DNA of 64,000 bases from [Phialemoniopsis] sp. UDSM-2020 (taxonomy: Eukaryota; Ascomycota; Sordariomycetes; Thyridiales; Thyridiaceae), in NCBI GenBank assembly GCA_018873225.1, contig JAEILZ010000002.1, positions 1,054,001 through 1,118,000 on the forward strand, written 5' to 3'. A program made the position numbers and the translations under genes. This document shows, one piece after another, positions 1-56,223 of this stretch (its first letter is position 1; the number at the start of each line of letters is the position of its first letter). A model generated the notes under the pieces. It saw nothing but the letters and a program-made list of their open reading frames with translations. It did no database searches and was not told the DNA's origin.

Positions 1-474
1 AAAGTGGACTGGACACAGATTAGAGCCGGAACAAGATGACCGAAACAGTACGCTTGGTCTTGAGGAGTGTTTGTAACAAGATGTAACCATGTCGTGGTCG
101 TGGTCCATAACTGCACGCTCATTGAACCCATTGCTGCGGGGACCATGAAGGTCCGGACATAGACCTCCGTGCTACTTGACCGGAGACTAATCTCCGGTTA
201 CGCTTAGCTTGCAAGAACTATGGTGGGGCGGCGATGTCGGTGTGGCCTCCTGCGCTCCCCAGAATTGTGGTTCTCGTGGTGGAGCTAATTCTTGCCGTGA
301 CTAAGCTCTCTCCACGGGGTTCGCAATTTGGGGATCTCTGACGATCCTGGACTGTGCGTTGCCTCATGAGGGGCAGTACCACTGGGCCGACACATTGCGC
401 GTGAAGCTCAATTGAAATCACCCTGGCATCCATCTCTCAGGTACGGCAAACCGAACTGTTGCATTCTCCGGTCG
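1..474. other. upstream region of the Zn2Cys6 gene, no gene seen
   Basis: I see no coding sequence here. The stretch is the promoter and leader of the regulator gene that starts at 475. Its one notable element is the perfect inverted repeat at 179-198, listed separately. Confidence 0.6.
179..198. promoter_or_regulatory. CGG-N10-CCG operator inside a perfect inverted repeat (site A)
   Basis: ACCGGAGA at 179-186 and TCTCCGGT at 191-198 are exact reverse complements around a CTAA spacer. CGG sits at 181-183 and CCG at 194-196, separated by 10 bases. Zn2Cys6 proteins typically bind paired CGG triplets with fixed spacing. The element lies about 280 bp upstream of the cluster's own Zn2Cys6 gene, so autoregulation is the natural reading. 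This is inferred from sequence only. Confidence 0.6.
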
Positions 475-2991
475 ATGGAAGACGGTAGTGGCCGCCTCGA
501 AGAAGCTGCAGGTTCTCAACAGCAGTGGGCAATGCCAGCCACCGCGGAGAGGGCACGCCGCCGGCGGCAGCAGGGCTCTTCTGCTACCTGCAAGTCATGT
601 ACTCTTTGCCGGCAGAAGAAGGTCAAGTGTGATGGAGCAAAACCCCGCTGTGAGACCTGCACAACTAACGGGCAGGCTTGTTCCTATCCGCAAGATGCTC
701 GTCGCGAGTTGAGACCATCAAAAGCCAGAATTCAAGCTCTCGAGGCCAACTTGGCCAACCTCTGGGAACACATGAGAGGTTCCGGCGTGCTGCCTCCTCC
801 ATCCCCGGTGTCGACGTCAGCAGTGCCGGGTTTGTCAACTGCAGAGGATGTTGATATGAGCATAATAACTGGCTCGGAACCAGCGCCGCCTTCGCAGTTG
901 GACACGAATGAAGACCTGGAACTTCACGCATGGACTCCGACTTCCAATTTTCAAGCCCACTCGGCCACCATTGGGACACAAGAGAGGCCTCATGTGGGTC
1001 TCAATGCATCATCAAATCATTATGTGTCTGCACAACGAGAGCCTGTACACTTGTCCGGGCAGGAAGCTATGCTGGATCGAACATTACCAGCGTCACAAGA
1101 TCAGAGCGATGAAGAGGACACTCCAAGCCTGTCCCCTTATGAAGTACAAGCGGTCGGTGTGTCGCGGCACGAGGGAACCGTTCAAGTCCTCGGCCCTAGT
1201 AGCATCCTGAACGCACCGTCAACTATCCCCACCCGCCCGAGCCAACATAACGCCGATAGACACGCAGCCATTGCTGCCTCTCGTGCTCGCCTCATCAGCA
1301 ATGCTGCGATACACCATCAGCAAGAGAACCGACTCTTCCAGCAACCCAACACAACCATGGATCTGGATGGAGCAAGTCCAGAGATGGCCAAACACCTGCT
1401 CGATCTGCACTGGAACCGTCATCACTATGCCTACCTTCTCACCTACCGGCCGGCGATCATGGATAGCATCGCCACAAGAGGTCCTTGGGTCAATAAACTC
1501 CTGTTGAATGCAATCTACTTTGCGAGTAGTCTGTACAGTGACAGGGCCTGCCTTCGATCTGACCCTAGCGATCCTCAAACGGTGGGCCAGCGGTTCTATG
1601 AGCGATTCAGGTCTCTTCTCGGCGAGGAAATTGTCAGACCCAGTATCCCGACCGCCGTGGCACTGCTACTCTGTGGAGGAACTCAGTTATCACAGGGCCG
1701 AGCTAGTGCCGGATGGACACTTTGCGGTACAGCGTACCGGATGATCACCGACCTGGGCTGTCATTTGATCCACAGTCCAAATGAAAAGGCGCATAAGTCG
1801 GTATCACATCAGACTCGAGTCGACGTCGAACTCGAAATGCGGAAGCGCCTCTTCTGGGGCGCGTTCATGACGGATGCGACCCAGTCGCTCTATCTTGGCC
1901 GCCCCTCCGGATTGTCGCTGGCCAAGTCCCGTGTGCCTCAGCTGCTCCTTGACACCTACGAGGAGCACTTGGACTGGTCGCCGTACATCGACCCAGAGAC
2001 GAAGTCATCTGCAGATCCTCTGATGCTAAGTTACTCCCCGAGACCGGCGTACGGAGTGTCGACATTCAAGGCGATGACCTCGTTATTTGCCATATCGGCT
2101 CAAATGAACCGTGACCTTTATGGCATCAATTCGGTGAAACAACACTCCGATCATCTCAAAGAGACAAAAGACGGTATTGTCAAGAACCTCCAACGGTGGA
2201 TCGATTCGATGGAAGCACACCTGTGTTTCAATCCAGCCACCGACCCGGTGCCGCCACCCCATCAGATCACGCCGCAGTAAGTGGGCCTCAACATGCATGA
2301 GAATAGCACCAAGCAATGAGATATCCTGACCATAGTTCCATATAGCACCTCTTACCATACCATCAGCATCCTTGTCCAAAGGCCGTTTATGAAAGATGGT
2401 CATCTGGCAACCCATACAAATGACATGGAGAAGGCACAGGGCGAGGAGATATGCATCCACCACTCCTTGAGAATATGGAAGTATGTAGAGGCCTACCGCC
2501 GAGCCTTCTCCTTGCGGAGGGCACCCTACCTGTTGTCGTACGCGGTCTATTCAGCCGTCGTCGTGCTCTTGCGACAGCGAAGGCAGGACAAGTCCAACTT
2601 CAGCGAGGCCATCAACTTCTTCTGGACCGCACTGTCCGAGCTCCAGAGAGGAGTCAACCTGGGGTTGAGTAAGCCAATGGCCGTTTTGAGGGATCTCATG
2701 CATGAAGTCGGGGCGGCGGGCCCGCTGGGCCAGGTGATCACTTCTGCGAGCGCCAATAAGCCGGCGCAGACACGTACGGGGCAGGCATTTTTTGACGAGA
2801 CCGATGCAGCCATTCTGACTGATTCGTTACATGACACATTTGGTCAGGGCTCACCGTCGTACGGCGACTATGATTCGATGCTGTTCAGTAATCCGGACGC
2901 AGGGTCGCTGTCATTCCTGGACGACCAAGAAAGATCAATTTCATACGACACCCTTTATGGGCTGTTTGCACCAGATCAGATGTTCAGCTAA
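475..2991 (+). CDS. Zn2Cys6 transcription factor with fungal-specific TF domain
   Basis: Two exons (475..2276, 2346..2991) give 815 aa. The 69-bp intron joins in phase as ..ITP-H-TSYHTISILVQRPF, the usual end of the fungal-specific TF middle-homology region. The first ATG of the open frame is at 475; the frame further upstream has no ATG. The binuclear cluster is C42-x2-C45-x6-C52-x6-C59-x2-C62-x6-C69, followed by a basic linker and a short helical RIQALEANLANLW segment that could dimerise. The family is nuclear and binds CGG pairs. It is the first gene of a run of divergently arranged enzyme genes whose promoters share CGG-N10-CCG, so it is the obvious pathway-specific regulator. The target and inducer are unknown. 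Confidence 0.9.
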
Positions 2992-3013
2992 TATAGAGGT
3001 CTGCATGGTCTGC

Positions 3014-3700
3014 TCATACGGCCGACACCTGTTGGACACTTTGGAGTCTCCAGACTCTCCTGATGTTTGGCTTCGCCGCTTGGCTCCGAATCCTCTGGGT
3101 CCAGGCGGTGCTGGTACTGGTCTGCCATTCCGGACCTCCGAGGCCGTTCTCCTCGTCGTACAGGTTCATTCCATAAAACCTTGCTTGCTCGCCGGCATCA
3201 CCGTACGTCTTTTCGGCCTTGAATCGTCGGGCGGCCTGCCAGCCGGGAACGTTGCCGAGCATGGGGCCGTGTTCATCATTGTACCAGTCGTGGTAGTCGT
3301 ACTCCTTGTCTTCACGCGGGGTTGACCCGTTGAGGACTATGATTGTCCCTTCGGGAGGGTCGAAGGGCACGGTGTAAGGGCGCGTCTCCGGTGCTGGGGT
3401 TACTGGACCTTTCGTTCGACCGTTGATAAACGAGACTACAACCCAAGCAATGACTGCGAGGTCGGAGCTGTGCGCGGCAACATCTTGTTTGTAATAGGAG
3501 TCCTGCTGAATGACAGGGGTAATATCGGAGAGAAAATAAATGGTGTTGAGAGAAGGTGTTTTCTCGTCTTTTCTAATCGTCTTGTAAATGACGTCAATGT
3601 TGGGGCACAGGTCTGCTGGAGCGAGGCTTGACTCGGATGGTTGTGAGCCCGGATGGATGTCGACTAGTCGCATCAACAGACCTGGACTTGCCGCCGCCAT
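3014..3700 (-). CDS. EthD-like dimeric alpha/beta-barrel protein
   Basis: A single-exon reading of 228 aa starts at the ATG at 3700. The C-terminal half carries the EthD-type signature EYDYHDWYNDEHGPMLGNVP (about residues 132-151), followed by GWQAARRFKAE. The N-terminal half begins SPGLLMRLVDIHPGSQPS, which resembles the start of the first barrel of two-barrel EthD proteins, but it lacks a clear second DWYN-H motif. An undetected intron or divergence of the first barrel is possible. EthD-fold proteins act in small-molecule conversions such as polyketide tailoring and catabolic auxiliary roles; the reaction here is unknown. The gene is divergent from the cyclase-family gene and shares a 394-bp promoter holding site B. 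It converges tail-to-tail with the regulator, with only 22 bp between stop codons. Confidence 0.7.
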   Translation of the reverse strand: MAAASPGLLMRLVDIHPGSQPSESSLAPADLCPNIDVIYKTIRKDEKTPSLNTIYFLSDITPVIQQDSYYKQDVAAHSSDLAVIAWVVVSFINGRTKGPVTPAPETRPYTVPFDPPEGTIIVLNGSTPREDKEYDYHDWYNDEHGPMLGNVPGWQAARRFKAEKTYGDAGEQARFYGMNLYDEENGLGGPEWQTSTSTAWTQRIRSQAAKPNIRRVWRLQSVQQVSAV

Positions 3701-4094
3701 GGTGGTGATGCAAGTGAATAGAGAAGCGTTGCTATGAACACGAACCCGTAATTGGGCGGTTCACTAGCAATATGAGGCGCTATAAATGTAGTGCCAGCGG
3801 CTCTAGGACGGTGTCACTCCACGGAGATTCTGAACCATGTCCCGCTACGGATATCAGCCTCCGAGCTTCAAGAGTGTGCGGTGGATATCGAAAGCACATC
3901 TCCGAGCCCCACATCGATGTGCAAGAGACGGCATATCGCCTTCTAATCTGCTCAGAATCTAGATACAGCCATCGTGCATTTTCGACTGTCGTTTACTAAC
4001 GTCTCTTTTTGTAAAGGAGACATAGCATACAGTGGGAGTAAGAATCAACAGACCGGTCTTTCTCTTCCATTTAGTCCATTTTAGTCAACAAACC
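3701..4094. promoter_or_regulatory. divergent promoter of EthD-like and cyclase-family genes
   Basis: This 394-bp intergenic region lies between two start codons. It contains CGG-N10-CCG at 3848-3863. It also has a nearby CGG-N10-CCA (starting ACGGAGATT, around 3820) that looks like a weaker half-match. No separate gene is visible. Confidence 0.55.
3848..3863. promoter_or_regulatory. CGG-N10-CCG operator (site B)
   Basis: CGG at 3848-3850, ATATCAGCCT, then CCG at 3861-3863. The spacer differs by one base from site D (ATATCAACCT), more than 5 kb away in another divergent promoter of the same cluster. Such spacer similarity is not expected by chance. Confidence 0.6.
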
Positions 4095-5370
4095 ATGGCG
4101 TTTCCGACGATCCCCTCGTTTGAGGACTTGCCCCTCCACCCAGAAGATCCTCCGCACTCCGCATGGGGCCTCTGGGGCAACAAAAGCCACCTTGGAGCTC
4201 TGAATTGGCTCACAGACGAGAAGGTCTCTGACGCGATTCACAACGAGGTCAAGACCGGAGAGCGAGTCGGTTTGAAGTGAGTGTACGGTTATCCATTGCA
4301 AGATGAAGTATCACTAAGATTCAGCCTACCCTTGGACATGTTTGATCCTCCTCTTCTCGGCCGTGCAGGGTTCTCCCAGAACATTGTCAACAAGGATCCG
4401 CTGATTGTAAATGATGATGTGGTCAGTAGTCACCGCGCACCGCGGTCCACCCTGCTAGCATGACATTGGCGATTGCTGACCGGAGAGTGTCGCGTCTAGA
4501 TCACTTTCAACACACAAGGAAGCTCACAATGGGATTCACTGAGGCATTTTGCATACCAAAAGGAGAAGCAGTTCTATGGCGGGTAAGCAGGAAACTTGGT
4601 CTTAACTTCTGCTTCTCTATTCCGAAAGCCCTAACATGCCAATAAGTATCACCCAGGATGACATCCATAAGGAGACCAGGACCGGGGATAATGGTTTGCA
4701 GTGTAAGTGGAAACTGTCTTGACGAAGTACAGTACTACTCACTCATCCTGATTGTGCTGTAGCATGGTCTGAAAGTTGTATCGCCGGTCGGGGGGTGCTC
4801 ATTGATTTTGCGTCATGGGCCGAGAGGAACGGGAAGCCAAACAAAGTCTTCGAGCAGTTTGGCATAACATTAAGCGACGTAAGAGACATCGCTCAAGAGT
4901 CGAATATCAAGTTCCAGAGAGGCGATATCTTGTTCTTGCGGACTGGGTACGTCAAGGCCTACTCCACGCTTTCGCAGAGCGAGCGAGTTGAGGTGGCATC
5001 TGTCAGAGCTTGGACCGGGCTAGCACAGAGTCGTGATACTACCGAGTGGCTTTGGAATAATCAGTTCGCCGCAGTAGCGTCAGACTCCCCGGGGTTTGAA
5101 TGCAGACGTACGCATCCACTTTCACCACTCTCTCGTTTTACGTGCTTAATGAGAATCTAATAAGCATTTCTAGCACCGACTGATCCATCGTATCACTTAC
5201 ACCCTATCCTACTGGCCGGCTGGGGAACACCTATAGGCGAGCTGTTCAATTTAGAGGGTTTATCTGAGCTGTGCAAGAAGCACAATAGGTGGTCTTTCTT
5301 CATCACTTCAGCGCCGCTCAACTACAAGGGAGCGGTAGCCTCCCCGCCCAACGCCATGGCAATTATGTAG
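4095..5370 (+). CDS. cyclase-family (kynurenine-formamidase-like) metal-dependent hydrolase
   Basis: Six exons (4095..4276, 4325..4421, 4500..4582, 4647..4702, 4763..5107, 5174..5370) join in phase to 319 aa. The family (PF04199 type) opens cyclic amides or formyl-amides, or cyclises acyl products, using a bound metal. Visible marks are NTQGSSQWDSLRHFAYQ (the fungal version of the metal site; the bacterial HxGTHxDxPxH is reduced to W-D-S-L-x-H), a GRGVLIDF strand, a RGDILFLRTGY strand and the C-terminal SAPLNYKGAVASPPNAMAIM typical of fungal members. No signal peptide is seen, so it is probably cytosolic. It is divergent from the EthD-like gene over site B. The substrate is unknown. Its company suggests hydrolysis of a ring intermediate. 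Confidence 0.9.
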
Positions 5371-5594
5371 TAGTCAAGTTAAATGTGATCACCAATGTTC
5401 TCGTGATCCAAAGCTCGCTATGTGCAACATACCAGGATTGCCTGGTTGCTGTGAAGGTGTGGATTGCTTAGATGAGATTAGACAATATATTGTTTGGACT
5501 TGGGTTGATCTAAATTACCCAACATATTTGCCAGACTACAGACTCGCACAATTATTCCAAGCTGATTTATTTGGCCGGTTGATGTCTTCCCCAT

Positions 5595-6478
5595 TCATAG
5601 AGCTGGGTCCCTGCCTATGAAACCAATTCCTGATTCAACCCATCGTGTAGTGCGTCTCCAATCGGTGATACTATCGACCAAATCCCTATAGCCAAAGGGG
5701 TCAGTGATCGGGTACAGCATGATAAAAGGAGTGAAGAGTGCAACTGCATACCTTGCCTTTGTACAGTCCTGCGATGCTTCAAACTGCTGGTAGTCGGACT
5801 TTGACCGGAAACGAGCAAATACCAAGAGTGTATCGTCCTGATATTCGTCAAGGTATTCCAAGACCCAGAAGCTTCTCGCCGTAGGACCAAAGTCCTCCGC
5901 GCACTTTGCCATTGTCCCTAAGAGCTCCAACGTCCACGGCTTTTGCCCCTGCCGTGGACGTAATTCGTCCACCACGACATAGCAACCTTCTTCTTCGGCA
6001 CGCATCTTCTTTGCTTCCCGTGTCATGAACCCATGCTTGGTAGGTTTGCAGAAACGCAAGTCACTTGGCCGCTGCAGCAATTTCTCGCTGCTGACCGCCT
6101 GGCGGAAGGACTTGTACTCATCGCTGGCGCGATGTGCCTCTTGGTTCGCTGCAATTGTCTTGTAACTGGACACCTGTGTGAGCGGTCGCGATTTGGACAG
6201 TCGGAGGACCGCTTCAGCATACTCACATCTCAAAACCTCTGACAAAATGCCTAGGAACGTCATAGTTGTCGTCAGCACTGCGGAACCAGGCATAACCTAG
6301 CGTGTCTGGCTCGTTACTGTGGGTCACTCTCGCGATATCGCGAATGTAGTCTAAGAACTGCGTGAATTCAATGACGAGGTCAGCATTGCTGTGTGATGAG
6401 ATGATACCGTAGTGCCTTTCGTACCCTGTCACGGGCCTCGGGCGAGGCACAGTTACTCAAAGGTGCAACAATATACAT
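5595..6478 (-). CDS. ABM-type (antibiotic biosynthesis monooxygenase-like) two-barrel protein
   Basis: On the minus strand, exons 6478..6425, 6357..6227, 6165..5752 and 5685..5595 give 229 aa. The start is the ATG at 6478; the longer contiguous frame around 6450 begins with GTG. It is joined by a 67-bp intron with a GCTGAC branch site, restoring VAPLSNCASPEARDR-FLDYI. The last intron is 66 bp and frame-neutral (CTGAC branch, CTATAG end), so a read-through form 22 residues longer is possible. Repeated motifs are HSNEPDTLGYAWFRSADD with PRHFVRGFE in barrel 1, and EGCYVVVDELRPRQGQ with TARSFWVLEYLDEYQDDTL in barrel 2. These fit stress-responsive or ABM barrels, which can be cofactor-free oxygenases. 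The activity is not provable here. It is divergent from the CMD-like gene over site C. Confidence 0.75.
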
Positions 6479-6819
6479 AGTTTCGTTCGCTGCTTTCTAT
6501 CGCTCGAGGTCTTAGAGGCAGTATCGAGACAATGACTATGATGTTGCTGATGTTGCACTAGCTCGAGCGCGGTCGGTTCGCGGCGTTGGCTTTTCCCTGG
6601 TTCCATACAAGTCTGCCACTTCTCACATACCCCACCTTGATCTCATCTCGCTCGCGTCGGTACTACATCTCCGGCAACACCAAATGGTGGGGCCAGCTAA
6701 ACAATGCGGCGGAGAAGTTATGTATCAAAACCGCTCGAGCAAGGGTTCGCAGGATCCTTCTTTCAGGTCGATGCGACTTCTGCTAGCTCCGAGGAACGTT
6801 TTACAGTATAGTGCAACAC
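6479..6819. promoter_or_regulatory. divergent promoter of ABM-like and CMD-like genes
   Basis: This 341-bp region between two start codons has no gene of its own. It carries CGG-N10-CCG at 6658-6673. Confidence 0.5.
6658..6673. promoter_or_regulatory. CGG-N10-CCG operator (site C)
   Basis: CGG at 6658-6660, TACTACATCT, CCG at 6671-6673, followed by G. The right half ATCTCCGG matches site A. It lies about 150 bp upstream of the CMD-like start and 180 bp upstream of the ABM-like start. Confidence 0.6.
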
Positions 6820-7670
6820 ATGATGGCTAGTAGCGCTGACACACCGAGTCTTGGCGACGACTTCTTCAACGCTGTGGAAACCCTGGGCACAGTTGAGGAG
6901 AAGACGAAATGGTACATGTGCACGATTGTCAACCTCTCTTCTCTAAACTTTCCAGAGCTTGTACCCGTAGTATGGGATCATATCACAAACCATCTCTTTT
7001 TAGGCTTGGACCATGATCAAAGGTTCCATATCACGCGAAAAATCAGGGAGGCCTTGATCAAATCGTGTGGCATCGTCGGGGCTGCCAAGGTGAGTCACAA
7101 AGCGTTGATGCGATTCAGGCATAAACATTTCAAGCGTAGCTGATCAATGCGTACAGACCGGCAATGCCATGCGCACACTATCAAAGTTCATCCCCAAAGA
7201 GCTCAAAGACCCTGTCTCTTTAAGGGCCCAGGAGGATCCAGCAATGGCGGCCGAACGCGGACATGCCTTTTGGAAGAGGATCTACGCAAGGAACCCCGAG
7301 TTTGATCCGAATGCCACGGTGGAAGCAAGCACTGACTACGCCTACGTCGTGCGAGGTATGTCTTGGGAGGGAGAGATTCTACATTCTAGCCGCCTGTTTG
7401 TTGATGCTGATGTTGTATGTAGACATCCTCTACGCGCGTTTATTCTCTTTCGACGCCATCCTGAATGATCTAGAGACTGGATACGTGATCGTGTCGGCAC
7501 TGATCGGCATCGATTGCCAGAACCAACTGCGGCACCACATGAAGGGCATGCTATACAACGGCGCGACTCGGGAGGATCTCGAAACCCTCAGGGACCAGTG
7601 CCTAGACAATGCGAAGAGACTAGGAGTTGTTTTCCGGAGTTCTCCGCGACCCGTACCCTCAATTGATTAG
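6820..7670 (+). CDS. carboxymuconolactone-decarboxylase (AhpD-fold) family protein
   Basis: Three exons (6820..7089, 7157..7355, 7423..7670) give 238 aa; a second ATG follows immediately at 6823. The AhpD-like all-helical fold is suggested by two related halves: TKWYMCTIVNLSSLNFPELV..ITRKIREALIKSCGIVGAAK, and FSFDAILNDLETGYVIVSALIGIDCQNQLRHHMKGMLYNGATREDLETLRDQ. The peroxidase CxxC of AhpD is absent; C-x5-HH in CQNQLRHHMKG could be the active or ligand site. Known relatives decarboxylate gamma-carboxymuconolactone or act as tailoring enzymes in fungal clusters. No targeting signal is seen. It is divergent from the ABM-like gene, and its stop lies only 69 bp from the convergent hydrolase stop. 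Confidence 0.85.
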
Positions 7671-7739
7671 GCATGCAGCAGCTATCTTGTAATTAACGAG
7701 CAAGACTTCATTCTATGTTTGCCACTGAGCCCGCCCAAA

Positions 7740-8858
7740 TCATTCCTCCAGAATAACGAATTGCTGAGTAGGCCATGGCTGCCCTAATAGCCACTGTAGA
7801 CACTGCGCCATCACTAGATCAAACCTCTCCGTGGACTTGAGCTCGACGAATCTTCGGAATCCGTGAGGGAGGCCTGGAAACATGTGACATCGAACCGGTG
7901 ATCTGTATTAATTCATGAGATATTTCTGCTATCATGGGTCGCACATCTTATCTACTCACCTTAAATCGTGAAGTCGTTGCGCGAATAGCAACGCCTCGTC
8001 ACGGAACGGGTCTCGGCCACAAACAACAAAAGCTGTAGGTGGAAATCCCTGAAGATCTTTAGACTCGGCCAGTGGAACGTTCAACAACGGATGGGTAGGG
8101 TCGCTGGCAGCTAAGCCTTTCATGAACAGGTCAACCCATGGCTTCGGGACGATAGGTGCCTCTGCGCACTGCTGGGACGATGCCTTCTCTCGGCTTTCGA
8201 ACTGGTCGAATGGGAAGTTGTCAGGGTGGATGATGAATGGAATGGACAACAATTGGCCCTTGACGCGAAGTGGTCGGTTGTTCTTCTTGGCGAGTGCCAG
8301 ATCACGATACACTACGCTGGCCGACAAGCTACTCCCGGCCGAGATCCCACCTACGATGACCTGTTCGGGGTCAATGTTGAGTTCCGAGGTGTTGGCCATG
8401 ATCCACTCAAAGGCATCCCAGGCGTCGTTGTGCTGTGTGGGGAATGGGAACTCTGGCGTGTGTCGGTAGCAGACATGAAGGACTGTTACTTGTGAATGTG
8501 CCGCCGTGAATGAGCACAGGAAGTTTTCTGTCTCAAGTGACCCAAACAGATATCCGCCGCCGTGGAAGTATACGTAGGCCGGACGTGGACTGCTTGTCGG
8601 AGTCGTTGCTGTGTAGCCTCGGATTGTGATGAATGCACCATCTCTAGTAGGCACTCGATAGTCCTTTTGGGTAACGGAGCCACGGAGCCCGGTTTCGTCC
8701 AGGCGTCGATGGGCAGCTTGTTCTCGGGCCGCATTTGTGGTTGCCTTGAGCTGAGAGAGGTTGACATTGGATGGCAGCACCGCATGCTCAGTGCCAGGAT
8801 TCGTCTGCAGGAAGGCCTCCCACTCCTTACTGGGTAAGCCATAGCGTGAAAAGTCCAT
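7740..8858 (-). CDS. HSL-family alpha/beta hydrolase (esterase/lactonase)
   Basis: Two exons (8858..7960, 7902..7740; 57-bp intron) give 353 aa. I chose MDFSRYGLPSKEW at 8858; an in-frame ATG at 8993 would add 45 residues that look like leader. The oxyanion motif is HGGGYLFGS, the nucleophile elbow is GGISAGSS, the acid lies in VVCGRDPFRDE, and the histidine in FPGLPHGFRR is encoded by exon 2. All catalytic elements of the hormone-sensitive-lipase (AXE/arylesterase-like) family are therefore present. It probably hydrolyses a small ester or lactone in the cytosol. It is divergent from the SDR over site D and belongs to the same co-regulated group. The last residues (..QQFVILEE) are ordinary. 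Confidence 0.9.
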
Positions 8859-9252
8859 CGATATTAAGGTTTGACTGCGCTGTGCGTCAGTATTGGTCAG
8901 ATTAAGGTGCAGAAAAGCCACGGCCAGGGTTAGAGCGTGAAGTTGACGTTCCGTAATCGAGTGGCGGCTTTCCTCCGTCTTGCGTAGGTACATATCCCGC
9001 TGACCAATCGGACCCTGCGGATATCAACCTCCGGCAAAAGGTAACTCTACGTTGAACACCTTGGTCTACGAGTTGTATACCACAGGAAGCTACCCCGAAC
9101 GGTTCCTCCACTTTGCATTACCGGACACACAGGACCGAGCGTGGGTTCCATCGCGTCGTAGCGCAGGATGTGATGTACACTTGACTTCGGCGCCCACTTT
9201 GGGGGCATCTGTTCGAGCCAAAAATGCCACACAACCACTAATTAGCTATATC
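8859..9252. promoter_or_regulatory. divergent promoter of the HSL hydrolase and the SDR
   Basis: This 394-bp spacer lies between start codons, the same length as the EthD/cyclase divergent promoter. It holds CGG-N10-CCG at 9018-9033. No gene is supported within it. Confidence 0.5.
9018..9033. promoter_or_regulatory. CGG-N10-CCG operator (site D)
   Basis: CGG at 9018-9020, ATATCAACCT, CCG at 9031-9033, followed by G. The 16-base element matches site B at 15 of 16 positions. Confidence 0.6.
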
Positions 9253-10193
9253 ATGGCTTCAGAAAATCATTTCCCAGGGAGGCCGTCGCGAGATCTATCC
9301 GGAAAAGTTGCTGTTGTGACCGGTGCAGGCTGTCAAGGAGATGGTATTGGAAATGGCAGAGCAATCGCCATCCTTTTGGCCGAAGACGGCGCGTCTGTGG
9401 TCTGTGCCGATCGAGTCTTGGCATGGGCCGAAGAGACTGTGAGAGTGATCAATAGCGAAGGAAAGGGGCGAGCTGTCAGTGCTGAGGGAGATGTGACAAC
9501 AGAGAAAGATTGTCAGCATATCACGCAGGTTGCTATGAGCACTTTCGGGCGGCTCGATATTCTCATCAACAACGTGGGCGTGATAGGAGCACCGGGTACC
9601 GCTTGCAATACAGACCTCCTCAAGTGGAAGGAGGCGCTCGACATCAACATAACCAGCATGATGTTGATGACGAAGTTTGCGGTTCCGGAGATGCTGAAGA
9701 ACCATCCTGATGGTTCTATGGGGACGCTGCGTGGCAGCATCGTCAACCTCGGGTCAGTCGCTGGCCTCCTTGGAGGAACCCCCAGCCTAGCTTATCCGAC
9801 TAGCAAAGGGGCTGTAGTCAATATGACTAGAGCCATGGCCACTCATCATGCCGCACAAGGAATACGCGTCAACTGTGTTTGCCCAGGTGAGTTGTGTACT
9901 TTCCTACCTCGAGACAAACCCCGTTCCTGGTGCGATAAAGTTCGAGAAGCCATGGCGCTAACCATGAGAGACCTGTAGGCATGTTATATACACCAATGAT
10001 GTACGCAGACGGGATGAGCGAGGAAGCAAGGGCAGTACGAAGAGAGAGAAGTCTGCTACGTACAGAGGGGACAGGTTGGGACTGTGCCGCCGCAGTCCGC
10101 TTCCTTGCGGGAGATGAGGCTAGATGGATTACAGGGACGATATTGACTGTTGATGCCGGTACAACGGCGACGTCTACAACACGCGTAGGATAA
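9253..10193 (+). CDS. short-chain dehydrogenase/reductase (classical SDR)
   Basis: Two exons (9253..9886, 9979..10193) give 282 aa. The Rossmann motif is VTGAGCQGDGIGNGRA, with a small insertion between the glycines as in some fungal SDRs. INNVGV stands in for NNAG, the catalytic serine is in IVNLGSVAG, and YPTSKGA gives YxxxK. The C-terminal WITGTILTVDAGTT is the usual SDR ending. CADR after strand 2 (an Asp) suggests NAD(H) preference. It is cytosolic. It stands head-to-head with the HSL hydrolase and upstream of the MFS gene in the same orientation. It probably oxidises or reduces an alcohol or ketone in the cluster's pathway. Confidence 0.92.
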
Positions 10194-10749
10194 TAATAAG
10201 CCATTGGTCTCTTCTTCCTGCGTATTGAAGAGTCCAGTCAAGGCACTGCCCCTGAAATCAGACTTTGATTTGATGTCGAACTAGAAGCGTCTCTAGCTTG
10301 ACCTTCGCAGACTGCTTCTAAATTGTCTACGTATTTTTTCCGCATTGGACAAAAGCGAGGGCCGAATTGGCGAGATTGCCTTGTGTCTTGTGCACACAGA
10401 TCCTATGTCCGGCATCACGCATGAATGTTCGAAGGCGCGCCCCGCACAGATACAACCGGTGAGGGGATGCGGAGAGGACATCTGGACTCCCCAGGATTCT
10501 TTTGCGACTCTCCACACTAACCCCGCTCAATTGGGGTCAACTGGACATTGACCTCCGGCCGCCCTAACCGTTGTCAAACTTGGCAAATTTGCAGCGAGGC
10601 TTAAAAAGACGGTTTCCGGACAGCTCTTGATGTTTGCTCAGCACGAACAGATCTCTTGACACTCAGTGTGTCGACAATCTTCTGTTGAGAACCGCATTTT
10701 CGTCTCGTTGATGGCCATCGAGCATTAGTTTCCCTTTCCATCTGTCGCC
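10194..10749. promoter_or_regulatory. MFS promoter region with a near-match operator
   Basis: This 556-bp region upstream of the MFS gene has no gene. It contains TGG-N10-CCG at 10542-10557, a one-mismatch form of the cluster operator, and a CGG-N10-CGG direct pair near 10457. Confidence 0.45.
10542..10557. promoter_or_regulatory. imperfect operator TGG-N10-CCG (site E)
   Basis: TGG, ACATTGACCT, CCG, then G. The right half ACCTCCGG equals that of site D, and the spacing is 10. The left triplet has one mismatch. It lies about 190 bp before the MFS start. It is weaker evidence than sites A-D. Confidence 0.35.
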
Positions 10750-12649
10750 ATGTCCACCATTCCCGCAGAAAGCAAGGCGATGAAGGAACATGTTGAAGAC
10801 AGCGAGTCCAATGCTGTCAACTCCAATCCGAGAAGTCATTTATACCCACAGCCTTCAAACGATCCTCTCGACCCTTTGAATTGGTCCTTGAAATTGAAGG
10901 CATGTCCTTGCACCGGCGAACCACATCCGCGCCCATGATCAAGCTTCTAACCTTCGGCCATTCGATAAACAGGTTGCCATTCTCTTACAGGTCTGCTGGC
11001 TTGCTGCTGTGAGCCATTCACTACCCCCGTCATGCAATACTGCCTAGACACTAATAATTGGAATAGTTGGGCACATGGAACACGGCCGTGATCAACCCGG
11101 CCTATGTCCCCATGGCCAAAGATCTTCACATCCCCACGGCGCAGGCATCTTACCAGACGTAAGAGTTAACACCACCTTCACACGATGCATGGGATCTAGG
11201 CTAACCTTTACGCTTTGTAGAACCATTGCAATCGCCCTCAACGGTGTCGGTCCGTTCATATGGATTCCGTTCGCAAATGTCTACGGACGTCGCTTCGTCT
11301 ACCTTTTGACAACCTTCATTGGCTTTGCCACCGCTCTAGGGTGTGGCTTTGTCACCAGTTACGGGCAGCTGATTGGCATCAGGGCCATCAATGGAATTTT
11401 CCCCGTTGCCATGGCGCTGGGCCCGGCCACGGTCACTGACGTCTTCTTTTACCATCAGCGCGGACGTGCTCTCGGGTGTTTCACCGTGTTTTTAACCTCT
11501 GGTCAGTAATGCTGAAGAGGGCTACAGTGCCCTTGATGATCTCTCTTGAATGTCCAGTACACTGACAGGGCAAATGCAATGCAGGCGCGCATTTCTCTGG
11601 CCTTTTCGGCGGCCCGGTGGGCCAGTTCTTGGGTTGGCGTTACATCTTCTGGATCACCGCTGCTATGAACTTTGTCACCCTCGCCGTCATCGTCTTCTTC
11701 CTCCCCGAGACAGTCTACTACACGCCAAGGGGCGAGGCGAACGTAGCCGAAACCGCCCCGGTCCTGTCTTCGGCGCAATACAGAAAGTTGCTAGCACCCA
11801 TCAAGAGGCATGCGGGTGTTGCACTCAAGCTGAAGCACTTCGTCCTACCCAGCTTCCGGATGGCTAAGTACCCAAGCGTGCTGTTCCCTGCGCTGTACTA
11901 CGCCTCCAACTATGTCTTTGCTGCCATCTTCCCCGCCGTGACGTATAGCGTCATCTTCGAAGAGAGGTTTGGCTGGAACACGTTCCAGTGCGGCATGGCC
12001 TACGGCGGGACCATGACCATCGGATCTATCGTCGGCGAGGTAAGGCAAAACTCCCAAGTTATGCTCCATCCCAGAAGCTGTTGCTCACAACCCGGTATAG
12101 TACTTTGCTGGCAGGATCATCGACAACGTCTTAGTCAAGGAGTCGAGGCGTTTGGGCACAGACAACCCGCCTCCAGAAGTCCGCTTCAGGGGCCTCTGGG
12201 GTGGGGCGATCCTGACGCCGGTCGGCCTCCTGCTCTTCGGGTTTTCGATGCATTACCCTGCTCACTGGGCAGCCGCGCTGCTAGGCATGTTCATTGGCAT
12301 ATTGGGCCTGCAGATCGTGGCGACTGTGTGCTACACGTATGCGATCGACTGCTACCGCGTCGAAGGGACCGAGGTGTCGCAGCTCTTTAACTTCATCCGC
12401 CAGGAGACTAGCTTCACTATTGCCTTTTACGGGATCAAGCTCTGTAAGGCCATCGGATATCACTTCGCTTTCCTCATGTTCGCGTTGGTGGGTGGTGGTC
12501 TTGCCCTGGCGCCCGTGGTAGTGCTTTACTGGAAAGGACAGAAGCTCAGGGAGAGCTTGGGCAAGCCGACAAATGTCAGTGTCATGGAGGAGATTCTCCA
12601 GGATCATCACGAGGTGTATGCTGTGCAAAGCAATGCCACAGGAGCATAG
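10750..12649 (+). CDS. MFS transporter (DHA1-like drug/metabolite carrier)
   Basis: Six exons (10750..10899, 10973..11008, 11067..11158, 11221..11501, 11585..12039, 12101..12649) give 520 aa. The N-terminal SNDPLDPLNWSLKLK is the classic fungal DHA1 entry motif. GRRFVYLL marks loop 2-3, and HQRGRALG and GPVGQFLGWRYIFWI follow, with about 12 hydrophobic segments overall. The first intron appears to use a GC donor (AAG|GCATGT at 10900), and exon 2 is only 36 nt. It is a plasma-membrane or vesicle carrier that could import the cluster substrate or export a product. Site E upstream ties it loosely to the CGG-N10-CCG regulon. Confidence 0.88.
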
Positions 12650-52663: not shown

Positions 52664-54838
52664 CTACCACCATTTCCACCTCACCAGACCTCCTCCCCTC
52701 CGCCGCCCAAGTGTGACAAAGGGATCCTGCCCGAGCCCGAATAGCCGGAAGTTGAGGCAGTCGACCATGGACGCGCCGCCGCTGGCCACGTTGCCCAGGC
52801 ACGCCGTGATGGCGGCGTTGACGTTGTAGATGCGCAGCGCCGCCGTGCACAGGTTGACCTGCGCCTGCAGGGCCGCGCCGCCGACAATGCCCGCTAGGCT
52901 GGCACAGACGCCCGGGAGGGTCGTGATGCACGCGCCCTCGCCGATCTCCTCGAGCGCCGTGTTGAGGCACGCCACAATTGATGAGCCACGCGTGGCGACG
53001 GTGATGCCTTGCGTGGTCAGGCACGACGCGATCTGCGGGATGGCACCGACGTCGCCGAGGGACAGGAGGCAGAGGGGCGTCTGGACGACGAGCGCGAGGC
53101 CGTTGAAGCTGACGAGCTGTGTGCACGCTCCCGGTAGGATGGCTGGCGTGATGGGGCACGCTTGCTCCGGAACGGGGGCGCCGGGGCAGCCTTCGGGGAT
53201 GGTGGGGTTGATGACCGGGAAGCCAAAGGCCGTCTGCAGGCAGGTTATGATGCCCGCACCGACAAAGTTGACCGTGGTGTCGAGGCAAGCCTGCGCCCTC
53301 GCGCCGCCCGAGTATGGACCGAGGGCGTTGCCGCACAGCCTGACGCCGGCGTTGAGTGCGGAGCCAGCAGCCACGTTAACGACGAGCTTGAGGCAAGGGG
53401 AGGGCAGGTTCGTGATGCAAGGCGTGCCGACGAGGTAAGTGTTCAGGCAGTCGACAATAGAAGGTCCGGCAAGCTGTATCGAGGAGAGACACTGCGCCAC
53501 GTCGCCGATAGCGCGGCCGCCCAGCGCGAGCGTGCAGCTCGCGAGGTCGAGGGCGTTGACGACGACGCCGAGCTGGCCGAGGCGCGCGCACGCCGGCGGC
53601 AGCGAGACGGTGCAGAAGGGCGCGCCGCCTGCGCCGGCGTCGGGCGTGCACTGGTCTGGCGGGTTGTTGGGGTCCGGGTTGTTCGGGTCGGTCGGGTTCG
53701 GCGGCGGCTCGGTCGACGTGGTGCTGGTCTGCTCGCTTGTCGTGCTGGTGGGCTCGTTGATGCCGTTCTGGTTGCCGCCGGTGTTGGTGATGGGCACCTG
53801 CACGATGACGGTGCCTTGGGTGCCGGTGGCGTCTGGCGGGACCGTGATGGTCTGCGTGACGGGGCCGTCGTAGCCGTAGGTGATCGTCGTGTAAGGTCCG
53901 GCGAAGGCAGTCGGGCCTGGGGTTTGGACGACGACTGTTCCGGTGGAACCGCCAGGTCCGGGAGGAAGCGTGAAGGTCGTAGGCTCGGAGCCAGGAGGCC
54001 CGGCTACCGTGACCGTAGTGAATGGTCCATCAAACGGGATCGGCTGCTGAGTGACGACGATGACTGTGCCCTGGGTATTCGAGCCAGTGGCTTGGATGGT
54101 GACAGTTGCACCCGCAGCCCCGGCCTCGGTGATGGTGGTGAAACCGGCGGGGATGTTGCCACCGTTGATGCCACCGTTGGTCTGTTGAGGACTGTTGCTG
54201 GTACCCGGAGTGACAACAATGATGGTGCCGGACTTGGTACCAGATGGAAAGACCGTGATCGTAGTTCGGGTCGCTCCAATGCCACCCGCGACCGTTGTAG
54301 TGACAAAGCCAGGCAGGATACCTGACTGCCGACCATTTTGAATAGAACTGGTCGGGTTAGTCAATCCACCTGTCACTGTCGGTTGACCATTGTTCGGTCC
54401 GCGGAATCCACCGGCCGATGATGTTTGACCATTGTTCGGTCCGCGGAATCCACCGGCCGCCGATGCTGCACTACTAGTAGGCAGGTTGGGTCCGCGGAGG
54501 CCGCCACCATTCACGATTCTAGGGGAAATGTTAGAAAATCTTGATCTTCTTGGCTCTACATGACCATCGACTTACGAAGTCGCCGTCCTGGTCGAGAACT
54601 CGGTCGAGGTCACCTGGGTACTAATGTCGATGGGCGCATTTGTGATCTGAACCGGCAGGCCACCACCGACGGTGATGACAGTGTTGGCTGGGATATATCC
54701 AGTAATGAGGTATGGGTGCTGGATGACATAGGAGATGGTCTGTACATCAACCTCGACAGTGCCGCTCGGGCAGACTTGGGCCAAGCATTGCCGCAAGCCG
54801 AGAGCCAAGGCAACACTGAAGAGTCCCGCTGATCGCAT
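52664..54838 (-). CDS. adhesin-like secreted protein with two repeat classes
   Basis: Two exons (54838..54576, 54518..52664) give 705 aa. The signal peptide is MRSAGLFSVALALGLRQCLA, then a short conserved domain (QVCPSGTVEVDVQTISYVIQ..). Next comes a Gly/Asn region with two GGFRGPNNGQ copies. About four flocculin-like units of roughly 40 residues follow (for example FTTVTVAGPPGSEPTTFTLP, then PGPGGSTGTVVVQTPG). After a TSTT/PPNPTDPNNPDPN linker, four Cys-rich repeats of about 70 residues follow, each patterned C..LP..C..LC..CL..CL (PFCTVSLPPAC, TPCITNLPSPC, CPITPAILPGAC, ACITTLPGVC). There is no hydrophobic GPI tail; it ends RRRGGGLVRWKWW. It is probably wall-associated. The Cys-repeat family is not one I recognise. 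Confidence 0.82.
54383..54459. repeat. tandem DNA repeat in the adhesin gene
   Basis: Two identical 35-bp copies (54383-54417 and 54425-54459), period 42 bp, encode the GGFRGPNNGQ units. Identity at the DNA level implies recent duplication or conversion. Confidence 0.85.
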
Positions 54839-56223
54839 CTTGGGAAGGCGGGTCAACTGCAACTAAGAACTGTAGAAAAGAGTGAACGGGAAGCAAAACT
54901 TCCCAGGGCAGAACACAATGCCAGGATACCATCATTGTATCGGAGGCTACGCGAAGCGGACCTGGGATGACTTCGAGCTATATAAATCTAGATGGCCTAT
55001 TCAAGCAGAGCTGAGCGGCCCTTTGCTGATTACGACTGTATGACGAGAAGAACGGTGGTCTCACGGGGAGGCACGGGGAAGCTCTACGCGTTGTGTACAT
55101 GGTTTGCTTGTGCAAGGCGCGCCAGGTGCAACTCGATCTGGAAGACACTTCACTACAGGCATGCCGAATATCCCGTCGTTGCGAGATAAACTTTGGATCC
55201 AGCACCAGAGGCGGTCCCAGAAGTTCCACAGAGACACGCGCATGAGGCTCGAGACGTTGGGGATTTCAAAACCTGGGCCTGGGTGCCTCGACTTCAATGT
55301 TGCCTGCCGAGCGGCACAAGCCAAGGTGGGACAGCTTCCGGTACAATCTGACTGCTAGCAAAAGGGATTGCATGAAAGCGTATATGAACCGATCAAATAA
55401 GAGTGAATTTGTTAGTGATCATAATGTCCAGCCTCCCGGCATTTGCCTGCCCGCTCGCCAACATGAAAAGCCACGATGCCCCAGTTTGAGGGGAGAATGT
55501 TGACCTCAAATTCCATCTGGAGATTAGTGTCTCTTATATTGCTTGCTTTACAACGTTGAAACGAGTCTGGCTAGGCGGGACGGGATCTCCGTGCGAGGTA
55601 ATGCAAGAAGAGAGCATTGCAAAGTTGGCAAAGACTTTTCATGGGGGAGCATGAGTGAGTGCCGGAGAATAACGGCCAGATAGATGCTTGGGAATGCAAT
55701 CGAAGGTACACTAATGTAGGTCCCGTGTTGATGCAAGGGATGGCCAAACTTTGCCGTGGAATGGTTGTGAGCGGCTCAAGAGCCTTGTGATACCCGCCAA
55801 TGGCATGCAGGAAGAAGAGTACGATCAAGTAAGGATCGCGTCTTTGTATGTTGGCGTAGTTTTCATCGTGACCTAAAATCCTTGCCTTTCATTCGCTCCA
55901 TCTTGCTACAGGAGCCCAATTTCTCGGGAAGAGAGTCGGGAATGCTCACAACACGGGGTAAAAAGGCGCGTCTGAAGAAACGGCTCTCCTGGATTCCAAG
56001 ACGGTCTTCGTGCTGCACACGACGCATCAGTAAATGGTCACACAAAAGATCTACCTCATTATATAGACCTCATGCCCAGCTTTTCTTGCATCATGATGAT
56101 CTGGAGCATCCAACACTCAGAGTCCATATCTCGCCCTCACACTCTTTTTTCAATTGCTTTTTTCCAGAGCCATAGCTCTCGTCACTCTTTACCAAACCCG
56201 CTCTTCGAGTCAATCCAATCAAT
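54839..56223. promoter_or_regulatory. 1.4-kb divergent promoter of adhesin and collagen-like genes
   Basis: It lies between two cell-surface protein start codons and has no supported gene. TATATAAAT lies near 54977 on the adhesin side and TATATAG near 56060 on the collagen side. Confidence 0.45.

What the first reader, a model, noticed from the sequence alone, without database searches (positions are those of the whole stretch)
179..10557. CGG-N10-CCG operator shared by the regulator and three divergent promoters
Seen directly: CGG-N10-CCG at 181-196, 3848-3863, 6658-6673 and 9018-9033, one in each of the regulator promoter and the three divergent promoters EthD/cyclase, ABM/CMD and hydrolase/SDR. 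The last four bases before the right triplet are always R-Y-C-T, and sites B and D match at 15 of 16 positions. A one-mismatch form (TGG-N10-CCG) lies before the MFS gene at 10542. With six fixed bases the chance frequency is about 1 in 4096 positions. Four hits in roughly 1.6 kb of promoter, with extra shared bases, are therefore unlikely to be random. Zn2Cys6 proteins bind such pairs, and the first gene encodes one. This defines an eight-gene regulon.
Basis: partly seen in the sequence, partly recalled or inferred. Interest (0 to 1): 0.85.

Follow-up and report, generated by a model that had tools for sequence, protein, structure and literature searches.

The report
Zinc-cluster regulon in fungal metabolic cluster
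A fungal gene cluster, probably for breaking down a ketone-like compound, carries the same short DNA tag in front of nearly all its genes and of the gene for its own regulator, which is the usual way such fungal clusters are switched on together.

Summary
All four CGG-N10-CCG sites and the TGG form at 10542 are at the stated coordinates. Five CGG-N6-RYCT-CCG sites fall in 2.34 kb of cluster promoters against 0.018 expected from the genome rate (RYCT was chosen after seeing the sites). The form CGGAYATNRRCCTCCG occurs exactly three times in 44.2 Mb, all here. No RYCT site lies in the 40 kb upstream of the window; the rest of the window has one, at 55576. This predicts nine genes: BVMO, Zn2Cys6 factor, EthD-like, cyclase, ABM, CMD-like, hydrolase, SDR, MFS. 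Site 6658 is the weakest. A paralogous cluster in the same genome has six of the nine clearly and a distant hydrolase, but lacks this operator. Regulator, cyclase and CMD-like genes look linked in several ascomycetes (inferred from equal contig lengths). Most likely an ordinary autoregulated zinc-cluster regulon with Put3-type N10 spacing, serving a catabolic cluster that my few literature searches did not find. Binding is not shown; another zinc-cluster protein of this genome, among similar N10 sites, is the main rival.

The parts
154..169 (+).
   Evidence: exact match to CGGAYATNRRCCTCCG, which occurs 3 times in the genome
181..196 (.). Operator site 1b, CGGAGACTAATCTCCG; perfect 6-bp arms, so it fits the RYCT form on both strands; 27 bp from site 1a
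   Evidence: held out, 9 positions in 302,500 bp score as high, itself and four other cluster sites included
3848..3863 (+). Operator site 2, CGGATATCAGCCTCCG, EthD-like/cyclase divergent promoter
6658..6673 (+). Operator site 3, CGGTACTACATCTCCG, ABM/CMD divergent promoter; weakest member
   Evidence: held out, 329 positions score as high
9018..9033 (+). Operator site 4, CGGATATCAACCTCCG, hydrolase/SDR divergent promoter; best-scoring site
10542..10557 (+). Operator site 5, TGGACATTGACCTCCG (left triplet TGG), about 200 bp before the MFS start
   Evidence: held out, 11 positions in 302,500 bp score as high, itself and other cluster sites included
475..2991 (+). Zn2Cys6 regulator, 815 aa, exons 475-2276 and 2346-2991; divergent from a BVMO whose start lies at -177 (C4:1,053,823)
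   Evidence: Zn_clus PF00172 2.6e-08 and Fungal_trans PF04082 1.1e-21; gene model
3014..3700 (-).
   Evidence: homologue beside the cyclase of the paralogous cluster, 46% identity
4095..5370 (+). Cyclase-family (PF04199) gene, about 6 exons; model uncertain in exons 2-4
   Evidence: 1.9e-09; model
5595..6478 (-). ABM-domain (PF03992) gene; splice model uncertain
   Evidence: 8.8e-09; model
6823..7670 (+). CMD/AhpD-like gene, 3 exons; PF02627 only at E 0.011, below Pfam's cut-off
   Evidence: some homologues are named carboxymuconolactone decarboxylase by their sources
7740..8858 (-). Alpha/beta hydrolase (Abhydrolase_3, PF07859); an upstream ATG at 8993 is possible
   Evidence: 3.1e-49; model, alternative start
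9253..10193 (+). Short-chain dehydrogenase/reductase (adh_short_C2)
   Evidence: 9.8e-53; model
10750..12649 (+). MFS transporter; 5' exons uncertain
   Evidence: 1.9e-35; model (second-best splice path taken)

Best explanation
The sites are operators of one pathway-specific Zn2Cys6 regulator, encoded at 475-2991. It most likely binds as a homodimer to inverted CGG half-sites 10 bp apart, with extra preference for CGGA-YAT on one side and RCCTCCG on the other. One operator in the middle of each divergent promoter (about 155-370 bp from both starts) serves both flanking genes, and a close pair (154/181) serves the regulator itself and a BVMO, which gives autoregulation. The nine-gene set probably breaks down an alcohol or ketone: SDR oxidises the alcohol, BVMO turns the ketone into an ester or lactone, the hydrolase opens it, the cyclase/CMD/ABM/EthD proteins process the product, and MFS moves substrate or product. 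Shown here: the sites, their placement, rarity and mutual similarity, the gene families, and the paralogous cluster. Inferred: dimer binding, activation rather than repression, autoregulation, the pathway and its inducer.
For: Site clustering beyond chance. Exact CGGAYATNRRCCTCCG three times in 44.2 Mb, all in this cluster, with the MFS site among the one-mismatch hits. Of the five strong sites, four sit inside divergent promoters, between the two starts, and the fifth lies before MFS. No RYCT site in 40 kb upstream. The regulator has a Zn2Cys6 domain resembling solved CYP1/HAP1, GAL4 and PUT3 domains. The BVMO, added by its shared promoter, is also in the C5 paralogous cluster of ABM/CMD, regulator, EthD/cyclase and BVMO. 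Regulator and cyclase homologues share a contig length for 26 of 120 listed regulator homologues. DNA-binding domain and linker are conserved among homologues. BVMO assignment: best PDB matches are steroid and phenylacetone monooxygenases; the FxGxxxHxxxW fingerprint (recalled) is present as FQGKLLHSARWD.
Against: The C5 paralogous cluster, with the closest paralogous regulator, has no RYCT site, so the operator is not conserved there. Site 6658 fails leave-one-out. With one mismatch allowed the tight motif is only mildly commoner in the genome than its reversed control (30 against 20; looser form 90 against 70). The direct dyad CGG-N11-CGG is as frequent in the same promoters (8, expected 0.93), largely because several sites are flanked as CCGG, so half-site orientation is not settled by sequence alone. 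Similar N10 sites surround another zinc-cluster gene on C7. No binding, expression or other-species promoter data.
Confidence: 0.72

Rival explanations
1. The operators are real but are bound mainly by another zinc-cluster protein of this genome, for example the one at C7 (ORF 1092463-1094370), with the local regulator acting indirectly or elsewhere.
For: C7 has CGGACATGGACGTCCG, CGGACTTGGACCTCCG, CGGACATGGAGGTCCG and CGGACATGGACGTCCA between its ORFs, and its gene has a zinc-cluster motif. Site 154 matches each of the first two at 14 of 16 bases.
Against: The window sites occur in this cluster's own regulator promoter; the C7 sites are more symmetric, and the exact window consensus is not found on C7.
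Confidence: 0.13
2. The protein reads CGG half-sites as a direct repeat (CGG-N11-CGG) or as a monomer on CCTCCG, and the N10 inverted form is incidental, as for TerR, which reads direct repeats.
For: Direct N11 dyads: 8 in the promoters, in 4 of 5, against 0.93 expected. The right half RYCTCCG is the more constant half. TerR reads CGG-N5-CGG and can bind as a monomer (PMC4360782, passages).
Against: The inverted N10 form is exact in sites 154, 181, 3848, 6658 and 9018; 3848 has no flanking CCGG and so no direct N11 dyad, and 154 has one only on its left side (flanks). Site 181 has perfect palindromic arms.
Confidence: 0.08
3. The similarity is chance, or a by-product of GC-rich promoter composition.
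For: The window's 39 CGG-N10-CCG exceed the 22.2 expected, and many lie outside this cluster. RYCT was chosen after seeing the sites. 116 of 2000 shuffles have some CGG dyad in 4 or more of the 5 promoters.
Against: 0 of 2000 dinucleotide shuffles of the same promoters give seven N10 dyads; 2 of 2000 give seven of any dyad; the seven promoter sites, not picked by RYCT, resemble each other more than all but 3 of 20,000 random draws. Held-out scores.
Confidence: 0.03
4. A variant of the best explanation, not exclusive of it: the operator is real for the BVMO, regulator, EthD, cyclase, hydrolase, SDR and MFS genes, but site 6658 is a chance hit and the ABM/CMD pair is controlled otherwise.
For: Site 6658 shares only 3-5 of 10 inner bases with the other sites and fails leave-one-out.
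Against: It keeps CGG-N6-RYCT-CCG, expected about 0.003 times in 344 bp at the genome rate, and it lies mid-way in the divergent promoter. The ABM/CMD pair is in the paralogous cluster too.
Confidence: 0.25

Closest known systems
Put3 operator, CGG(N10)CCG, yeast (PMC5729217, passages read)
   Same: Inverted CGG triplets with a 10-bp spacer; the passage says Put3 also binds the spacer, which fits conserved inner bases here.
   Different: Proline pathway; here the inner bases are asymmetric (YAT on one side, RCCT on the other).
TerR of the Aspergillus terreus terrein cluster (PMC4360782, passages read)
   Same: Cluster-encoded regulator with a shared CGG-based motif in most promoters of its cluster, including a bidirectional promoter.
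   Different: TerR reads direct repeats CGG-N5-CGG and did not recognise inverted half-sites; terrein is biosynthetic.
Paralogous cluster of the same genome, C5:486.9-500.5 kb
   Same: ABM, CMD, regulator, EthD, cyclase and BVMO homologues (segments 34-62% identical) and a distant hydrolase (24%); the ABM/CMD and EthD/cyclase pairs are divergent in both.
   Different: No CGG-N6-RYCT-CCG site; no SDR or MFS homologue found in the 40 kb read at E 1e-4.
C7 zinc-cluster locus of the same genome
   Same: Several CGGA-N8-TCCG-type N10 sites between ORFs around a zinc-cluster gene.
   Different: Different genes (PALP enzyme, MFS, D-glutamate cyclase, hydantoinase/oxoprolinase); regulator only 26% alike.

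Membership tests
Zn2Cys6 zinc-cluster transcription factors with Fungal_trans domain | Binuclear zinc cluster CX2CX6C...CX2CX5-8C (pattern recalled) | tested here: met
   PF00172 2.6e-08, residues 41-77; CTLCRQKKVKC...CETCTTNGQAC
Zn2Cys6 zinc-cluster transcription factors with Fungal_trans domain | Fungal_trans middle region PF04082 | tested here: met
   1.1e-21, profile positions 1-261 of 262
Pathway-specific cluster regulator with operator in its own cluster | Shared site in most cluster promoters, rare elsewhere | tested here: met
   4 of 5 promoters hold an exact RYCT site and the fifth (MFS) a one-mismatch form; genome counts; edges
Pathway-specific cluster regulator with operator in its own cluster | The encoded protein binds the site and controls the genes | not testable with these tools
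   No binding or expression data
Pathway-specific cluster regulator with operator in its own cluster | Site kept in orthologous clusters | tested here: inconclusive
   Paralogous C5 cluster lacks it; no other-species fungal DNA could be read (searches found no relative)
Put3-type N10 inverted CGG operator | CGG-N10-CCG, inverted, fixed spacing | tested here: met
   5 exact RYCT sites and 1 near site
Put3-type N10 inverted CGG operator | Bound by a Put3 orthologue | tested here: inconclusive
   DNA-binding domain matches CYP1 (6.4e-07) and GAL4 (1.2e-06) slightly better than PUT3 (5.4e-05) by sequence; orthology not tested
Type I Baeyer-Villiger monooxygenase (the added ninth gene) | Homology to solved BVMOs and FxGxxxHxxxW fingerprint (recalled) | tested here: met
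   Steroid monooxygenase 4aos 6e-54, phenylacetone monooxygenase 1w4x 3e-52; FQGKLLHSARWD in the model

The most novel reading that the evidence does not exclude
The operator defines a widely conserved but undescribed ascomycete catabolic cluster (SDR, BVMO, hydrolase, cyclase, CMD, ABM, EthD) with its own regulator subfamily (CKTC-x2-CRQKK...YPQDARREPRPS linker). After duplication of the cluster within one genome, the two regulators (42-46% identical over the first 600 residues) have come to use different operators while the core gene content stayed the same, so the pair would show operator divergence that keeps two copies of a pathway apart.
Probability: 0.25. Interest if true: 0.5.

Novelty: new member of a known kind. 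Interest (0 to 1): 0.3.

Why it matters
It gives a precise, testable operator for a zinc-cluster subfamily found across ascomycetes, delimits a catabolic cluster that my searches did not find described by its regulatory sites, and offers a duplicated cluster in one genome for comparing how operators diverge. The kind of system is well known, so the surprise is modest.

Tried and rejected
Operator in the C5 paralogous cluster: no RYCT site; best promoter scores 12.7 (TGGACATCAAACGCCG before BVMO) and 8.2 (TGGACATGCAAGTCCG in ABM/CMD), against 16.2-23.5 for the window's sites, not convincing. CGG dyads and shared 9-mers among five C5 promoter stretches gave no clear alternative motif.

Operator near other paralogous regulators: C8 has CGGACATGCGTCTCCG between the regulator and a CoA-transferase gene, and CGGGAGTGCACCTCCG near an enoyl-CoA hydratase gene. 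Over the six paralogous loci other than C5 (120 kb) there are 3 RYCT sites (2 at C8, 1 at C6, the latter inside the regulator hit) against 0.94 expected at the genome rate, so this stays suggestive. Shared 11-mers with the sites in 290,500 bp were at the chance level: 6 hits, 5.0 expected. A 12-base match to site 6658 (ACTACATCTCCG) lies at the 5' part of the C5 ABM gene without the left CGG; taken as chance.

The four copies of CGGAYATNNRYCTCCG outside the cluster: C8:172777 and C1:6097428 lie between ORFs near regulator-like genes, C4:6260229 lies inside an ORF with a zinc-cluster-like stretch, C9:2305276 near a long ORF. Not enough to claim a wider regulon.

Other-species DNA: scans of genome contigs and viral contigs for the regulator family found no relative. 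Literature: searches (the exact N10 notation) found no paper; 35 (5 listed of 5) and 61 (10 listed of 85) listed none on such a cluster by title and abstract start; none of those was opened. Searches were for comparators (15 of 21, 12 of 46 and 8 of 97 listed). Passages were read in PMC5729217, PMC5215518 (AtrR; only says that CGG-Nx-CCG motifs, one of them N10, were found in a promoter) and PMC4360782. A home-made gene finder gave poor models at first, then usable ones.
Full report
Setting. The window is C4:1,054,001-1,118,000 of a 44.18-Mb genome in 11 contigs. Spliced genes, Zn2Cys6/Fungal_trans proteins and nearest homologues in ascomycetes point to a filamentous ascomycete; the species was not identified.

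The sites. A fifth RYCT site, CGGACATAGACCTCCG at 154-169, was missed. It lies 27 bp from the palindromic site 181 and shares 9 of 10 inner bases with the 10542 site. Together the sites read CGGAYAT-N-RR-YCTCCG, with 6658 (CGGTACTACATCTCCG) as the outlier. Two further CGG-N10-CCG in the cluster promoters, at 27 and 9122, are not of the RYCT form.

Chance. In the five cluster promoters (2339 bp by my gene models) there are 7 CGG-N10-CCG; 2000 dinucleotide shuffles average 0.46 and none reaches 7; some one of 63 CGG dyads reaches 7 in 2 of 2000, and some dyad is in 4 or more promoters in 116 of 2000. The genome has 12,345 such sites, or 0.65 expected in 2339 bp. CGGN6RYCTCCG has 347 strand hits in the genome, fewer than the reversed control (525), so 0.018 are expected in these promoters and five places are seen. 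RYCT was chosen after the fact. There, counting the held-out site and the other cluster sites, 2 to 11 positions of 302,500 bp score as high as 154, 181 (better strand), 3848, 9018 and 10542, but 329 as high as 6658. Those 302,500 bp were not a random sample: they were fetched around this cluster, regulator paralogues and near-motif hits. The tight form CGGAYATNRRCCTCCG occurs exactly three times in the genome, all here, with 10542 among the one-mismatch hits; with one mismatch the genome has 30 against 20 for the reversed control.

The genes. Upstream of the regulator, on the minus strand and outside the window, a BVMO starts at -177 (PDB matches). The regulator promoter is thus a fourth divergent promoter. 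Sites lie 156-366 bp from the starts they could serve. Families: Zn_clus and Fungal_trans, cyclase, ABM, Abhydrolase_3, SDR, MFS. Gene models come from my own splice search and are uncertain at several exons.

Edges. No RYCT site lies in the 40 kb before the window, and only 55576 in the window after 10557. The genes I call cupin (Pfam), permease, P450 and esterase (by eye) upstream are therefore not in the predicted set.

Paralogous cluster. On C5, 486.9-500.5 kb, lie homologues of ABM(-)/CMD(+), the regulator, EthD(-)/cyclase(+) and BVMO, plus a distant hydrolase (24%). The regulators are 46% identical over residues 19-608 and 39% beyond (42% and 35%). This supports BVMO as a true member, as the shared promoter had suggested. 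But C5 has no RYCT site and no convincing substitute. Either its regulator uses another site or the operator was gained or lost in one copy. This is the main result against a conserved operator.

Other species. Homologue tables give the longest contig of each protein. Equal contig lengths place regulator and cyclase together for 26 of the 120 listed regulator homologues (25 named, 1 unnamed; 120 of 398 and 120 of 1073 hits are listed). For the CMD-like protein, 14 of the 34 homologues with a species name, among 68, share a contig length with a listed regulator homologue. Eleven species have all three. In ten of the 15 pairs that show tags for both, regulator and cyclase tags differ by exactly 2, as in the window's regulator-EthD-cyclase order; two of these ten carry tags that may not be positional. 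Others differ by 1, 3, 7 and 13, and in Diaporthe batatas the CMD-like tag is 60 from the regulator's, so same contig is not always same cluster; in Aspergillus sydowii the listed cyclase is on another contig. These counts were made by reading the tables; equal lengths are an inference; and I did not separate orthologues of this cluster from those of the C5 copy. Promoters of other species could not be read.

Regulator. The zinc-cluster domain matches CYP1/HAP1, GAL4 and PUT3 in the PDB. Many homologues share CKTC-x2-CRQKK and the linker YPQDARREPRPS (consensus and invariant columns of 12). Conserved domain and linker suggest, but do not show, a conserved target; the C5 protein keeps part of both and lacks the operator.

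Mechanism. The best reading is a homodimer on inverted CGG triplets with Put3-type spacing (PMC5729217, passages), one operator per divergent promoter, and autoregulation through the 154/181 pair. TerR is a close working example of a cluster regulator whose motif recurs in most promoters of its cluster, although it reads direct repeats (PMC4360782, passages). Direct N11 dyads are also frequent here (8 against 0.93), largely because several sites are flanked as CCGG; site 3848 lacks them, which favours the inverted reading. The chemistry (alcohol to ketone to ester to acid) is inferred from BVMO, SDR and hydrolase families.

Main rival. On C7, four CGGA-N8-TCCG-type sites lie between ORFs around another zinc-cluster gene (zinc-cluster motif), and two of them share 14 of 16 bases with site 154. 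A different zinc-cluster protein could therefore read the window's sites.

Verdict. A real, rare, cluster-bound element, best explained as an ordinary autoregulated zinc-cluster regulon of nine genes. New member of a known kind; interest modest.

Noticed in passing
G000:C7:1091032-1098297 (loci L005, L006): A second putative N10 regulon: CGGACATGGACGTCCG, CGGACTTGGACCTCCG, CGGACATGGAGGTCCG and CGGACATGGACGTCCA between ORFs around a zinc-cluster gene, a PALP enzyme, an MFS gene, a D-glutamate cyclase and a hydantoinase/oxoprolinase gene.
   Followed up: partly
G000:C5:486903-500545 (loci L016, L017): Paralogous cluster with six of the nine genes clearly and a distant hydrolase in the same genome, without the operator.
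   Followed up: yes
G000:C8:172777-172792 and 177000-177015 (loci L019, L020): Two RYCT-type sites near a paralogous regulator, one between it and a CoA-transferase gene, one near an enoyl-CoA hydratase gene.
   Followed up: partly
G000:C1:6097428 and 6097585 (locus L031): Two RYCT-type N10 sites 157 bp apart between an MFS gene and a hydroxyisobutyrate-dehydrogenase-like gene, near a regulator-like gene.
   Followed up: partly
window 54402-54417 and 54444-54459: The same CGG-N10-CCG 16-mer, CGGAATCCACCGGCCG, occurs twice 42 bp apart, perhaps a tandem repeat.
   Followed up: no
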